Origin: Deltaproteobacteria bacterium
Lineage (GTDB): Bacteria > JAUYMQ01
Direction: 5' to 3'
Assembly (NCBI GenBank): GCA_030698575.1
Contig: JAUYMQ010000625.1
Location: 1-14,937 of the forward strand
DNA length: 14,937 nucleotides
Shown: in pieces, positions 3,534-9,322 of the stretch
How positions within the stretch are numbered: the first letter of the stretch is position 1
How the letters are laid out: every line of letters starts with the position of its first letter
The notes under the pieces: generated by a model
Seen by the model: the letters and a program-made list of their open reading frames with translations, nothing else
What the model was told of the DNA's origin: nothing
The model's database searches: none
Made by a program: the position numbers and the translations under genes

Positions 3534-3887
3534 TCAGCCGATGTTCGCGAGAGCGAAAACGGTAAGGCCCGTTCCGAGGAACGCGACGCCGTAGAAGATG
3601 AAGGCCACCAGGCCCGGGGCCTCGAGCCCCAGATCGGAAACGACGTGCTTGAGCCGGTGCCCCGCGTGGAATAGCGAGAGCGAAATGAGCGCCAGGAGGT
3701 AGAGCTTCGCGATCGGGTGAGAGAGCAGCTCGACCATGCGCCCGTAGCTCGTGGCGCTTTCCGGCAGCCAGCCCAGCTGCATGGCCAGCCCCTGGAAGAA
3801 CACGTGCCCCGGCAGGAAGATCGCGGACATCATCCCGCCTGCCGAGAACAGAAGCCACCAGAAAGATTCAGTCTTCTGTGCAGCCAT
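3534..3887 (-). CDS. frdD: Fumarate reductase membrane anchor subunit D
   Basis: The 117-residue hydrophobic protein has about three membrane spans (around 10-34, 58-76 and 91-113). It shows FrdD hallmarks: FWWLLFSAGGMMSAIFLP near the N terminus and FHAGHRLKHVVSDLGL at 73-88, matching the His-rich HRxxH segment next to the quinone site of E. coli FrdD. With FrdC it anchors the catalytic FrdAB dimer to the cytoplasmic membrane and binds menaquinol or quinone. It is last in frdABCD, 6 nt after frdC. Its Shine-Dalgarno GGAGG is made from the last Gly codons of frdC, so the two are probably co-translated. The length is close to the roughly 119 residues usual for the family. Confidence 0.92.
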   Translation of the reverse strand: MAAQKTESFWWLLFSAGGMMSAIFLPGHVFFQGLAMQLGWLPESATSYGRMVELLSHPIAKLYLLALISLSLFHAGHRLKHVVSDLGLEAPGLVAFIFYGVAFLGTGLTVFALANIG

Positions 3888-3893
3888 TTTCGT

Positions 3894-4316
3894 TCACCCT
3901 CCGAGCGAGAAGTAGCCGATCACCGCCGCCACGGCGACGACAAGTCCCATGTTGCCCAGCACGAACATGGACGGCGGGACCTCGAATTTTCCAATGCGCA
4001 TGGGCGACACGACGGCGCCGGCCTGGAACCATGTAATCGAGTGAAAAAGCACGAAGAAGAGGGCGAAGAGCGAGCCGATGGCAAGCGCGACCGAATTCGT
4101 GGCGCCCGCCAGCCAGGCGTTCCAGGCCGCCTCGCCCTTCGAAATCGCGATGAGCCCCTGCAGTAGCCTCATGGCGAACAGCAGGACGAAGAGGGCCGTG
4201 AATTCGCGCACCATGAAGAGCAGGTAGGGGCGCTTCTTGGTCCACCAGAGCTCGGGGTAGGGCTTGATGTAGTCCTTGTAACCGGGCTCGGGAACGCGGT
4301 AGTCCTTTGCGCTCAT
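3894..4316 (-). CDS. frdC: Fumarate reductase membrane anchor subunit C
   Basis: The 140-residue protein has three predicted membrane helices (about 31-54, 72-93 and 116-137). FMVREFTAL (34-42) aligns with the R-E pair of E. coli FrdC. FHSITWFQ (91-98) aligns with its LHTKTWFE, so the quinone-site His (H92) and Trp (W96) are kept. WW at 24-25 also matches the family N terminus. The start at 4316 follows GGGGAG by 5 nt. An in-frame upstream ATG would overlap frdB and has no support. The anchor has no obvious heme-ligand pattern, consistent with a heme-free E. coli-type complex. It lies 13 nt after frdB. Confidence 0.92.
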   Translation of the reverse strand: MSAKDYRVPEPGYKDYIKPYPELWWTKKRPYLLFMVREFTALFVLLFAMRLLQGLIAISKGEAAWNAWLAGATNSVALAIGSLFALFFVLFHSITWFQAGAVVSPMRIGKFEVPPSMFVLGNMGLVVAVAAVIGYFSLGG

Positions 4317-4329
4317 TGCTTCTCCCCTC

Positions 4330-5076
4330 TCATCGGGACGACCCTCGCGGAAGAATGAAAGACTTGATCTTGTCGAGGACGTTCGCGAGCTTCTCGCGCT
4401 GAATGGCCGCCGCGGGATCCACGTGCTTCGGGCAGACCTCGCTGCACTCGCCAACGAAGGTGCATTCCCACACGCCCTCGCCGCTGCCGATGATCTTGTT
4501 GCGCTCGGCCCGCGCGCCGTCGCGGCTGTCCTCATTGTAGCGATGGCCGAGGGCGATAGCCGCCGGGCCGAGGAAGTCTTGGTGCTTGCCGTAAACCGGG
4601 CAGGCGGCATAGCAGAGCATGCAGTTGATGCACATGGAGAACTGCCGGTAGGCCTCGAGCTGGCGCGGCGTCTGAAGGTACTCGCCCTCGTCGATCGACT
4701 TCTCTTCCTTGGGGATGAGCCAGGGCTTCACCCGCTTCAGCTTCTCCATGAAGTCGCTCATGTTGACGACGAGATCCCGCATGATGGGGAAGTTCGCCAG
4801 AGGCTCAACGGTGATGTCGCCCTCGAAGTCGCGAAGGAACGTGGCGCAGGTGAGCTTGGGCACGCCGTTCACGTTCATTCCGCAGCTACCGCAAACCCCC
4901 ATCCGGCAGGACCAGCGGTAGGTGAGTGTTCCGTCCTGCTGGTCCTTGATGTGGTTCAGGGCGTCGAGAACGACGGTGTCGTCGTCATAGGGGACCTCGT
5001 AGGTCTGCGTCCGCGGCGCCGAATCGGTTTCGGGGTTGTAACGCGTGACGGTCAGCTTCTTCATCTTATCGCTCAT
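4330..5076 (-). CDS. frdB: Fumarate reductase/succinate dehydrogenase iron-sulfur subunit
   Basis: The 248-residue protein carries the electron wire between FrdA flavin and quinone. The N-terminal plant-type ferredoxin domain holds the [2Fe-2S] ligands C57, C62, C65 and C77 (SCRMGVCGSCG and LTCATF). The C-terminal helical domain has CINCMLCYAACP with C149, C152, C155 and C159, then C205, C211 and C215 (WECTFVGECSEVCPKHVDP). By family rules C149, C152, C155 and C215 bind [4Fe-4S], and C159, C205 and C211 bind [3Fe-4S]. All ligands are present. The start codon shares its A with the frdA stop (TGATG), indicating translational coupling; GAGGAG lies 11 nt upstream. Confidence 0.97.
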   Translation of the reverse strand: MSDKMKKLTVTRYNPETDSAPRTQTYEVPYDDDTVVLDALNHIKDQQDGTLTYRWSCRMGVCGSCGMNVNGVPKLTCATFLRDFEGDITVEPLANFPIMRDLVVNMSDFMEKLKRVKPWLIPKEEKSIDEGEYLQTPRQLEAYRQFSMCINCMLCYAACPVYGKHQDFLGPAAIALGHRYNEDSRDGARAERNKIIGSGEGVWECTFVGECSEVCPKHVDPAAAIQREKLANVLDKIKSFILPRGSSR

Positions 5077-6797
5077 CAGTACTTGCGCTCCTCGGGCTGC
5101 CAGCGGGTGATCGTGGCCGGGCGGTATTCGAGGCGCGGCCCGTCCTCCGTCCGGTGGGCGATCGTGTGTGTCAGGAACTGCTGATCGTTCCGCCCCTTGT
5201 GGTCCCTGCGCTGGTGCGCCCCGCGGGATTCCGTTCGCCTGAGCGCACCCTCGGCCATGGCCAGCGCGATGTCGAGCATGAAGTCCAGCTCGATAGCCGC
5301 CGTGAGGTCGGTGTTGAAGACCCGATTGCGGTCGTCGATGCTGATCCTGCCATAGCGCTCGCGAAGCGTCAGAAGCTTGTCGCGCGCGGCCTGGATCGTC
5401 TCGCCGTTCCGGTAGACGCCGCAGCCTTTCTCCATGGCGTCCTGCATTTCATGGCGGATGGTCGCGATGCGCTCGCCGTTCTTGTGATCCTGGAGGTAGG
5501 TCCGCTCGATGCGGGCCCACTCGTCGCGAGCAATCGATTCCGGCGCAGGGCTGCTGTCCGAGCCTCCCTGCCTCACGTACTGCGCCGCATGCTTGCCGGC
5601 CCAGGCGCCGAAGACGAGGCACTCGGTGAGGGAGTTCGATCCGAGCCGGTTGGCGCCGTTGATCGAGACGCAGGCAACCTCGCCGGCGGCATAGAGCCCC
5701 CGCAGGGGCGTTGCGCCGTTTATGTCGGTATCGATGCCGCCCATGCAGTAGTGGACCACGGGGCGGATGGGGATCGGCTGCTTCACAGGATCGATACCGA
5801 CGTATTTCGTGGCCAGCTCGCGCACGAACGGGAGCCGCTCGTTGATCTTCTTTTCGCCCAGATGGGTGAGGTCCAGATGCACGTACTGGCCGTGCTTGCC
5901 TTCGAAGGCGCGTCCCGCTTCCATTTCCTCGATGATCGCGCGAGAGAGGAGATCGCGCGGCCCCAGCTCCATCTTTGTAGGCACGTAGTTGCTGAGGAAC
6001 CGGTCTCCCTCCTTGTTGAAGAGGTAGCCGCCCTCGGCGCGCGATGCTTCGGTGATGAGGATGCCGGTGCCCGGCAATCCCGTCGGATGATACTGAACAA
6101 ACTCCATGTCCTTCAACGGCACACCGGCGCGGTAGGCCATCGCCATTCCGTCGCCGGTCTTGATGGAGGCGTTCGTGGTGAAGGGGAACACCTTGCCTGC
6201 GCCCCCCGTGCAGATGATGACCGCGCGGCCGTAGATGGGCAGAAGCTTGCCGCTGTGCAGATCGATCGCCGTGACGCCCCGGACGGCTCCGTCGTGCACG
6301 ATCAGCGAAGTTACGAACTGCTCGTCGTAGCGCACGATGCGATCGTACTTGAGGGAGGTCTGGAACAGGGCGTGGAGCATGTGAAAGCCGGTTTTGTCGG
6401 CGGCGAAGAGCGTGCGCGGCGTGCTCATCCCTCCGAACGTGCGGGTGGCCACCCGCCCGTCGGGATCGCGGCTCCAGGGACAGCCCCAGTGCTCCAGCTG
6501 GAGAAGCTCACGGGGAGCTTCCTTCACGAAGGCCTCGACCGCGTCCTGGTCGGAGATGAAATCGCTTCCCTTGATTGTGTCGAAGGCGTGCAGATCGAAG
6601 CTGTCGTTCTCCGTCTTGACCACGCCCGCCGCGCCGCCCTCGGCGGAGACGGTGTGGCTGCGCATGGGGTAGACCTTCGAAACCATTGCGACGGTGAGCT
6701 TCGGGTCGGCCTCGACCGCGGCGATGGCGGCGCGAATGCCGGCGCCGCCGCCCCCTACCAGCACAATGTCGTGTACGACGGGATCGGTCAGGGACAT
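5076..6797 (-). CDS. frdA: Fumarate reductase/succinate dehydrogenase flavoprotein subunit
   Basis: The 573-residue catalytic subunit interconverts fumarate and succinate with covalently bound FAD. GGGGAG (15-20) begins the Rossmann fold. H48 in [10 protein letters not shown] is the expected 8-alpha-histidyl FAD site. Active-site residues are present: H237 (YHPTG), R281 (ELGPRD, the proton-shuttle Arg), H349 (VVHYCMGG) and R384 ([10 protein letters not shown]). The sequence around 231-392 is close to E. coli FrdA but lacks about 11 residues before ELGPRD, and overall it is some 30 residues shorter. Start: GGAGGTGA, a near-perfect Shine-Dalgarno, lies 5 nt upstream. It opens frdABCD. Because no other complex II is visible, it could run as succinate:quinone oxidoreductase aerobically as well; direction cannot be decided from sequence. 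Confidence 0.97.
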
Positions 6798-7081: not shown

Positions 7082-7918
7082 TCAAGGGCAGCCGGTGTCG
7101 TTGCCGCAGAGGTTCTTGCCGAGCTGATCCGGATCGCCGACGCCCTGAGAACTCACGTTGGTATTGTTGTCGGTCACGATGTTCTCCAGGTAGCCGGAGT
7201 TGTCGGCGATGAAGAGGCCGATGATGTTTCCCGTGAGCACATTCCCGGCCACGAAGCATTGCTCTCCAGCCGAAGTTCCCGGGCCGCCGTTGCCAGAGGC
7301 GGTGTTGTGGGTGAGGCGGCTGGAATCCCCGCCGGCGATTCCGAAGTCGTCGTTCCGGATGGCCTGGCAATAGGTAACCGCGCTGTTCCCGCCCACCCCG
7401 ATGCCGCCCTCGCCGTTCTCCTCCGCCCTGATCCGCTCCACGCGCGCTGCATCGCCGAGCCGGAGGCCATGGCCCGGCATGCCCCGGATGGTTCCGTCCA
7501 CCACGGTCGTGTTCTTCACGCACCCCTCGCCGGCGCAGGCGTCGACGCCGCTCCCCCCCTCCACCTCACCGGACGGATCGCAATCGTCGACGGGGCTTCC
7601 CGTGCAGCTTCCCGGGCCGATGATGCTGAAGCCGTTCATGTTGAGGCTGACGTTGTCGGCGGCGATCTGGATGGCGTCGGTGTCCGCCGTCGCCAGGGGA
7701 TCGATCGTGAGGTCGAGGTTCGTGACGAGCACGTAGGCGCCCGGCTCGAGGATGACAATCGGGAAGAGGGACTCCGAGGTTTTCTTGTTCTTCTGGAGAT
7801 CCTGCCCGATCTGGACCGGGCCGTCGTTTTTCTTGCCGGCGAGCGCGGGCGAGGTCGTGAGTATGAGTGCCGCGAGGGTCGCCAGGGCGATCTTCGTTAT
7901 TCGCTGAAACTTCCGCAT
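7082..7918 (-). CDS. Secreted right-handed parallel beta-helix repeat protein
   Basis: The 278-residue protein starts with a clear Sec signal peptide: MRKFQRITK, a hydrophobic core, then SPALA before GKK (cleavage near residue 28). The mature part has short repeats with regular Gly/Asn turns, such as VSLNMNGFSI, TTVVDGTIRGMPGHGL, GEGGIGVGGNSAVTYC and NVLTGNIIGLFIADNSGYLEN. This is the pattern of right-handed beta-helix proteins (NosD/pectate-lyase-like, Beta_helix family). About eight Cys in the exported part, including a pair near the C terminus (NLCGNDTGC), may form disulfides. No catalytic motif of a polysaccharide lyase is evident, so the function is unknown; carbohydrate binding or a surface/periplasmic role is possible. 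The start at 7918 was chosen for GGAGGTGG upstream and because the signal peptide begins there; a start 41 codons earlier would bury it. It looks monocistronic. Confidence 0.85.
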   Translation of the reverse strand: MRKFQRITKIALATLAALILTTSPALAGKKNDGPVQIGQDLQKNKKTSESLFPIVILEPGAYVLVTNLDLTIDPLATADTDAIQIAADNVSLNMNGFSIIGPGSCTGSPVDDCDPSGEVEGGSGVDACAGEGCVKNTTVVDGTIRGMPGHGLRLGDAARVERIRAEENGEGGIGVGGNSAVTYCQAIRNDDFGIAGGDSSRLTHNTASGNGGPGTSAGEQCFVAGNVLTGNIIGLFIADNSGYLENIVTDNNTNVSSQGVGDPDQLGKNLCGNDTGCP

Positions 7919-8242
7919 GCCTTCCACCTCCGAAATCTCTGATCGGTCTTCTCTCGCGCGGAGCGAGGAGCAGAGTGCTGGATTGTCGGGGGGGGATTTA
8001 TTTACGGGGTATTTCGAGTTGCCGGACGCCGAGACTCCCACGCGGAGTCCGGAGTGTCAATGACGGGAACGCCCCGGATCAACCTGCCACAACGCCTCGT
8101 GGCATCCAGGGGGCAGGGCACAACATCTTCCACAGGGCCTCAAGGCGGGATCCTTCATGGCGGGAACAGTCTAAAAATGCTTGACTCGGCGCGTCGGCGC
8201 GGCATGATGGCCCGACCAAGCTTCCCCCCCGAGAGGGAAGCC
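7919..8242. other. Divergent intergenic region (324 bp), no gene seen
   Basis: The gap lies between the beta-helix gene (leftward) and the first small membrane peptide gene (rightward). It holds an AT-rich patch beside a G tract near 7988-8014 (ATTTATTTACGGGGTATTT). It also holds an inverted repeat GACTCC-CACGC-GGAGTC at 8033-8049, a small hairpin TGCCAC-N8-GTGGCA at 8085-8104, and the candidate promoter at 8181-8208. I found no convincing promoter for the beta-helix gene. Confidence 0.5.
8181..8208 (+). promoter_or_regulatory. Candidate promoter of the first small membrane peptide gene
   Basis: TTGACT (8181-8186) is followed after 16 nt by CATGAT (8203-8208), 34 nt before the start codon. 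The match to sigma70 boxes is 5/6 and 4/6. The same arrangement, with identical spacer length and TTGAC/CAT cores, recurs before the paralogous gene at 8447-8474, which raises confidence. Confidence 0.55.
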
Positions 8243-8392
8243 ATGCGTACACCAAGCATTGTCAGACGCGTCACACTGCCCCTCATCATCCTGTTCTTCG
8301 CAGCCTTGTTCATCATCTTCAGCGCCAACATGGGTGAGTGGGTGCGCTCCAACGCCAGTAGCCCGCTGATCGAGGCCTTCGTATCGCACTAG
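8243..8392 (+). CDS. Small single-span membrane peptide, 49 aa (tandem paralogue 1)
   Basis: The peptide begins MRTPSIVRRVTLPLIILFFA. It has a basic N terminus, one hydrophobic helix (about residues 10-27), then NMGEWV (29-34) and a short polar tail ending AFVSH. It is exactly as long as the gene at 8507 and shares 24 of 49 residues with it, including PS, VRR, PLIIL, AAL and GEWV. Conservation of length and pattern despite DNA divergence supports real coding. The positive-inside rule predicts the N terminus in the cytoplasm and GEWV with the tail outside. The ATG at 8243 was chosen because GAGG lies 6 nt upstream, the promoter is 34 nt upstream, and the similarity starts there; a longer in-frame ORF from 8054 would begin upstream of the promoter. 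I do not recognise the family; a small toxin, a stress peptide or a complex accessory subunit are all possible. Confidence 0.75.
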   Translation: MRTPSIVRRVTLPLIILFFAALFIIFSANMGEWVRSNASSPLIEAFVSH

Positions 8393-8446
8393 GATCGGGG
8401 AGCTTCCGGCCCGCTCGGCCGCGAGGAACCCCGAAAACACCCCTAC

Positions 8447-8474
8447 TTGACGCGGCCCGGGGATCAGCCATACT
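8447..8474 (+). promoter_or_regulatory. Candidate promoter of the second small membrane peptide gene
   Basis: TTGACG (8447-8452), a 16-nt spacer and CATACT (8469-8474) lie 32 nt before the start codon. The layout copies that of the first gene, suggesting the promoter was duplicated with the gene and that both respond to the same sigma factor. Confidence 0.55.
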
Positions 8475-8506
8475 GACAGGGTCCCACCGCCGGTCGGATC
8501 GGAACC

Positions 8507-8656
8507 ATGAAACGACCCTCTCTCGTCAGACGCCTCTCGGTGCCGCTCATCATCCTTCTGCTCGCAGCCCTTTACCTGCTCTTCACCACCAATGTGGGTG
8601 AGTGGGTAAGTTCGCTCGAAGGGAGCCACCTGACCGACGTGCTCGTGACGCGGTAA
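8507..8656 (+). CDS. Small single-span membrane peptide, 49 aa (tandem paralogue 2)
   Basis: The peptide begins MKRPSLVRRLSVPLIILLLA. It has a basic N terminus, one membrane helix (about residues 10-28), NVGEWV (29-34) and a tail ending VLVTR. About half the residues equal those of the upstream paralogue, and most other differences are conservative (I/L, V/L, S/T). It lies 114 nt after that gene with its own promoter-like element, so the two can be expressed independently. The ribosome-binding site is weak (GGATCGGAACC before ATG). A strong hairpin starts 41 nt after the stop. No known family is recognised. The divergent tails (residues 35-49) are where the two peptides could have specialised. 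Confidence 0.72.
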   Translation: MKRPSLVRRLSVPLIILLLAALYLLFTTNVGEWVSSLEGSHLTDVLVTR

Positions 8657-8697
8657 CGGCGGAAGCGGAAAAATATTTCAGAGCCTCAAAATACGTG

Positions 8698-8721
8698 CCC
8701 GGGGGGAGCTGTCCCCCCGGG
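8698..8721. terminator. Strong bidirectional terminator hairpin
   Basis: CCCGGGGGGA and TCCCCCCGGG form a perfect 10-bp stem around GCTG. It stands between the convergent second peptide gene (stop at 8656) and the charged-protein gene (minus strand, stop at 8766). Plus-strand transcripts continue TTCGCGTTT and minus-strand ones CACGTATTTT, so it could serve both, with imperfect U tracts. Confidence 0.75.
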
Positions 8722-8765
8722 TTCGCGTTTCAGGGCGTGCACGACCTTCCTATCGAGGCCCGTGC

Positions 8766-9263
8766 TCAAACGGATTCAAGCAGCTCGTCTGCGGCTGATT
8801 CGACGTCGGCATCGTCCGTGATGCTCTTCACGCGGCGAAGGGCCTTGGCCAGCGCATCGCGGTCGACGCTTCCGGCGCGGGCCATCGGCGCGAGCGCGTC
8901 GAGCGCGCGAAGAACGATCTCGGCGTTCTCGTGGTCGAGGAATAGCAGGAGCAGATCACCCGAGGCGGGGAAACCGCTTTTCTCGATGTAAGCGTCGCAA
9001 GCCTCCGAGAAGCCCCGGGTGCCGCGCGCGTCGCGCACAGCGCTCTCGGCCGCGCCGCCGGACCTCTTCTTCGAGCCGCCGAAGAGCTTCTGGTCGAGCT
9101 TCTTGAGATAGGCATCCTTGGCCGCCTTCGAGGTCTCCCGCTCCTTCTCCGTCCGGGGCTCGCGCGGCCCCTCACGGGCGCCATGGGCGCTCCTGTCCCG
9201 CTTCTTGTCCATCTCCCGCCAGCTCGGGCGGTCGTGGCGATCCATGTCTTCACGTTTGGGCAT
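8766..9263 (-). CDS. Hypothetical charged protein with helical C-terminal domain
   Basis: I do not recognise this 165-residue protein. Residues 1-80 are rich in Arg, Lys, Asp and Glu (MPKREDMDRHDRPSWREMDK) and probably disordered. Residues 84-163 are predicted helical, with alternating hydrophobic positions (SGDLLLLFLDHENAEIVLRA, then further Leu/Ala-rich helices), resembling a pair of HEAT/ARM-like units. There is no signal peptide, membrane span or Cys. The Lys/Arg-rich tail could bind nucleic acid or a membrane surface, but nothing proves it. It lies 59 nt after the molybdoenzyme gene on the same strand with no terminator between, so they may be co-transcribed. The ATG at 9263 lacks a good Shine-Dalgarno; another at 9245 is possible. 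Confidence 0.7.
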   Translation of the reverse strand: MPKREDMDRHDRPSWREMDKKRDRSAHGAREGPREPRTEKERETSKAAKDAYLKKLDQKLFGGSKKRSGGAAESAVRDARGTRGFSEACDAYIEKSGFPASGDLLLLFLDHENAEIVLRALDALAPMARAGSVDRDALAKALRRVKSITDDADVESAADELLESV

Positions 9264-9322
9264 GGCTGGAGATCCGGCTGGAGAAGGCGCGGCCAGGGGG
9301 GCGCCCAGGGGTGCGGGATGCC

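What the first reader, a model, noticed from the sequence alone, without database searches (positions are those of the whole stretch)
8181..8721. Tandem pair of unrecognised 49-residue membrane peptides with duplicated promoters
Two plus-strand genes encode peptides of identical length (49 aa) sharing 24 residues, including VRR, PLIIL, AAL and GEWV. Each is preceded by TTGAC, a 16-nt spacer and CATxxT, and a perfect 10-bp hairpin follows the second. Gene and promoter were duplicated together, the membrane core was kept, and the tails diverged. The set resembles small stress or toxin-like peptide loci, or accessory subunits of membrane complexes, but matches nothing I know. Such short genes are commonly left unannotated.
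Basis: partly seen in the sequence, partly recalled or inferred. Interest (0 to 1): 0.72.

Follow-up and report, generated by a model that had tools for sequence, protein, structure and literature searches.

The report
Tandem orphan small membrane-protein genes
Two neighbouring, duplicated genes each seem to make a 49-residue protein that crosses the cell membrane once; they look real and kept by selection, but no relatives were found elsewhere, so their job is unknown and they are one more example of short bacterial genes that annotation tends to miss.

Summary
Two 49-codon plus-strand ORFs (8243-8392, 8507-8656) encode peptides sharing 24 of 49 residues without gaps. Each follows a sigma-70-like site with a 16-nt spacer (8181, 8447), the only two in 1.4 kb where 0.1 is expected; a perfect 10-bp hairpin follows the second. 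Neutral simulation rejects unconstrained divergence (P about 0.0007) and codon-position GC supports the plus strand, so both are probably real genes; dN/dS is only about 0.55 and rests on one pair. Both peptides have a basic N-terminus, one hydrophobic helix, a conserved N-x-GEWV boundary and a variable tail, predicted N-in/C-out. No homologue was found in about 900 whole genomes, a peptide-word scan of 85,000 species, phages, plasmids, viral contigs, Pfam, NCBIfam, PHROGs, PADLOC or the PDB. The genome is Myxococcota-like (best rpoB match 75%) and no close relative is held, so conservation between species is untested. Best reading: a lineage-restricted pair of single-pass membrane microproteins, more likely partners or modulators of a larger membrane protein than toxins; that function is inferred, not shown.

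The parts
8181..8208 (+). sigma-70-like promoter of sORF1 (TTGACT-16-CATGAT)
   Evidence: consensus match only
8220..8241 (+). leader hairpin GCUUCCC/GGGAAGC next to the sORF1 start codon; part of the Shine-Dalgarno-like GAGAGGG lies in it
   Evidence: z -3.5 to -4.1, none of 200 shuffles as stable; not matched in sORF2
8243..8392 (+). sORF1, 49-aa predicted single-pass membrane protein
8395..8434 (+). GC-rich hairpin between the two genes, no U-tract
   Evidence: z -3.2 for 8390-8446
8447..8474 (+). sigma-70-like promoter of sORF2 (TTGACG-16-CATACT)
   Evidence: consensus match only
8507..8656 (+). sORF2, 49-aa predicted single-pass membrane protein
   Evidence: model helix 6-48
8698..8721 (.). 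perfect 10-bp hairpin between convergent genes; the scanner scores it as a terminator for the minus-strand gene, weaker T-run on plus

Best explanation
A lineage-restricted tandem pair of paralogous genes, each with its own promoter and 3' hairpin, encoding 49-residue single-pass inner-membrane microproteins (basic end in the cytoplasm, tail outside). Most likely each binds a larger membrane protein through its helix and the interfacial GEWV motif and tunes that partner, the variable tail and separate promoters giving the two copies different conditions or targets. Shown: the duplication, the promoter-like sites, protein-level constraint (statistically). Predicted: membrane helix and topology. 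Inferred only: partner binding and modulation.
For: Gap-free 49/49 alignment with 24 identities. Changed residues are far more conservative than neutral change gives (mean BLOSUM 0.40 against -0.85; total score P 0.0007) and helix hydropathy is kept (P 0.015). GC by codon position is low-low-high on the plus strand, like the window's known genes. Promoter pair similar beyond chance. N-terminus of 3-4 basic residues before a 19-residue segment of hydropathy 2.4-2.7. Confident helix in the model, pLDDT about 92 over residues 11-30. No antisense promoter-like site.
Against: No homologue in any collection, so conservation between species is unshown. dN/dS of 0.55-0.63 from 48 codons is weak; the third-position excess is not significant (P 0.11). 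No partner gene is linked. No expression data. The helix model rests on two sequences.
Confidence: 0.45

Rival explanations
1. Membrane-acting stress peptides like type I toxins (Hok, Ldr, TisB, DinQ kind): held silent in normal growth and, when made, insert in the bacterium's own membrane and lower its potential.
For: Small hydrophobic single-helix peptide, tandem copies, good promoter-like sites, and a stable leader hairpin at the sORF1 start that could block ribosome entry. DinQ shows that a single-helix peptide can act so (PMC3567139, abstract).
Against: No promoter-like site for an antisense RNA; leaders of about 28 nt are short; the hairpin is not significant in sORF2 (z -1.3); no Pfam or PADLOC toxin match.
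Confidence: 0.2
2. Exported peptides: the hydrophobic stretch is a signal peptide and the variable 14-20-residue tail is released as a signal or bacteriocin-like peptide.
For: Basic-hydrophobic-polar layout; tail most diverged, 4/14 identical.
Against: No good signal-peptidase site seen in both copies (by eye); the stretch just after the helix is the best conserved; no exporter or immunity gene adjacent.
Confidence: 0.12
3. A gene pair of recent local origin with little or no function, drifting since duplication.
For: No homologues; dN/dS 0.55-0.63; single genome.
Against: Neutral simulation rejects drift (P 0.0007; frame, start and stop all kept in only about 4% of runs); promoters kept as well.
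Confidence: 0.13
4. The minus-strand ORF 8171-8629 (152 aa) that spans both copies is the real gene and the two peptides are its shadow.
For: It is open and in register across both repeats.
Against: Codon-position GC would be high-low-low, the reverse of the window's genes; promoters are on the plus strand; its E/D/Q-rich product is what the complement of a membrane helix gives.
Confidence: 0.03

Closest known systems
Small single-pass accessory subunits and regulators (CydX, KdpF, AcrZ, SgrT and MgtS kind; MtrI bound to the Mtr complex, PMC12774963)
   Same: Very short, one helix, stand-alone short gene, commonly unannotated.
   Different: No sequence match to any Pfam or NCBIfam model; tandem paralogues; no partner operon.
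Type I toxins (Hok, Ldr, TisB, Ibs, DinQ)
   Same: Short hydrophobic peptide; tandem copies occur in some families.
   Different: No antisense promoter-like site, short leaders, no family match.

Membership tests
Pfam/NCBIfam small membrane protein families held in the libraries | Match to the family profile | tested here: not met
   no family up to E 1 and E 10
Small single-pass accessory subunits | Physical association with a larger membrane complex | not testable with these tools
   needs a pull-down; no linked partner gene in the window
Type I toxin-antitoxin | Profile match to a known toxin family | tested here: not met
Type I toxin-antitoxin | Antisense RNA antitoxin gene | tested here: inconclusive
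   no minus-strand promoter-like site in 7900-9300, no Rfam match; other promoter types are not covered
Type I toxin-antitoxin | Growth arrest on overexpression | not testable with these tools
   experiment needed
Single-pass membrane microprotein (general kind) | One hydrophobic helix with asymmetric charge | tested here: met
   prediction only

The most novel reading that the evidence does not exclude
The founding pair of a new small membrane protein family confined to an unsampled Myxococcota-like lineage, with translation of one copy gated by a start-site hairpin.
Probability: 0.25. Interest if true: 0.45.

Novelty: new member of a known kind. Interest (0 to 1): 0.3.

Why it matters
If real, it adds a lineage-specific pair to the short membrane-protein genes that annotation misses, and the duplicated promoters give a within-genome test of coding when no relatives exist. 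Function remains open, and nothing here departs from the known kind.

Tried and rejected
Weak hits to the two-sequence profile were each read and rejected as chance: L086 is the N-terminus of a 493-aa multi-helix membrane protein; L087 is a polar frame opposite a longer gene; L088 lies opposite another ORF; L089 has stops in frame and an unrelated sequence. Synteny through frdA: 80 loci in many phyla, none with the pair. Synteny through the 165-aa neighbour: 20 regions, none with the pair and almost no other window gene. PDB: only chance matches at E 0.75. The second genome-contig scan went to frdA in order to place the genome, so the two-row profile was not run on all 85,000 species.

Full report
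Observation. They align end to end without gaps with 24 identities. A promoter scan finds exactly two sites in 7900-9300, one before each ORF, with the same 16-nt spacer (0.1 expected by shuffling). The promoter segments share 19 of 31 bases (P 0.0003) while the leaders share 11 of 31. The 10-bp hairpin is at 8698-8721. DNA similarity is a 127-nt, 70% direct repeat with 264-nt spacing.

Are they genes? Three lines, none decisive alone. First, GC by codon position is 0.46/0.44/0.80 and 0.62/0.40/0.74, close to the pattern of the window's other genes (for example frdA 0.64/0.45/0.86), which also argues against the open minus-strand ORF 8171-8629 that spans both copies. Second, 52 nucleotide differences were simulated without selection: the frame, start and stop all survive in about 4% of runs; among runs without an internal stop, the total BLOSUM score reaches the observed 129 in 0.07%, and the helix keeps its hydropathy in 1.5% (the model assumes 62% GC and a twofold transition preference, and starts from one copy). 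Third, dN/dS is 0.55 (NG86) or 0.63 (LWL85), but with 48 codons the third-position excess is not significant (P 0.11). I judge real protein-coding genes at about 0.85-0.9.

What they look like. Residues 10-28 have mean hydropathy 2.7 and 2.4, preceded by 3-4 basic residues. By the positive-inside rule (general knowledge) this predicts N-in/C-out. The model of sORF2 is one helix, 6-48, confident over the membrane part and poor in the tail (two sequences only). The strongest conservation is N-x-G-E-W-V at the outer end of the helix. Each gene is followed by a GC-rich hairpin. The sORF1 leader folds into a 7-bp stem ending 1 nt before the AUG and covering part of a GAGAGGG ribosome-binding-like sequence (z -3.5 to -4.1); the sORF2 leader stem includes the AUG but is not beyond chance (z -1.3).

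Relatives. The window is a whole contig of a 4.1-Mb draft genome that holds only these two copies. That genome has no classified kin in the held set. Its rpoB fragment is at most 75% identical to any tested genome and 72-73% to several Myxococcota-like ones, and the neighbouring 165-aa protein has homologues in 65 of 342 genomes of that phylum, so I place it near Myxococcota at a deep level. The peptide sequence or two-row profile found nothing credible in 192 diverse genomes, 377 and 319 (largely overlapping) genomes of the nearest phylum, 336 of a second phylum, an exact 8-residue-word scan of about 85,000 species, viral contigs, plasmids and phages. Pfam, NCBIfam, PHROGs, PADLOC and the PDB gave no match. 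Because no close relative was available, this shows narrow distribution, not absence of conservation.

Mechanism. The anatomy fits a single-pass membrane microprotein whose helix and interfacial GEWV contact a partner, duplicated so that two copies can be made under different control. That a partner exists is inference from the known behaviour of such proteins. The toxin reading remains open, since type I toxins share size, hydrophobicity and tandem copies, and the sORF1 leader hairpin could silence translation; but an antisense promoter, a long regulatory leader and a family match are all missing. An exported peptide and recent drifting duplicates are less likely.

Verdict. It is an orphan member of a well-known kind, of modest interest.

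Noticed in passing
8766-9263 (-): A 165-aa protein without any Pfam, NCBIfam, PHROGs or PADLOC match is found in 65 of 342 genomes of the nearest phylum (up to 45% identity): an uncharacterised conserved family.
   Followed up: partly
3534-6797 (-): An E. coli-type fumarate reductase set (frdD, frdC, iron-sulphur subunit, frdA) whose frdA is 58-69% identical to copies in Latescibacterota, Gemmatimonadota, Acidobacteriota, Planctomycetota and others, suggesting wide horizontal transfer.
   Followed up: partly
8171-8629 (-): A 152-codon open frame lies in register opposite both small genes; codon-position GC argues it is a shadow frame.
   Followed up: yes
8220-8241 (+): A stable hairpin abuts the sORF1 start codon and covers part of its ribosome-binding-like sequence.
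   Followed up: partly
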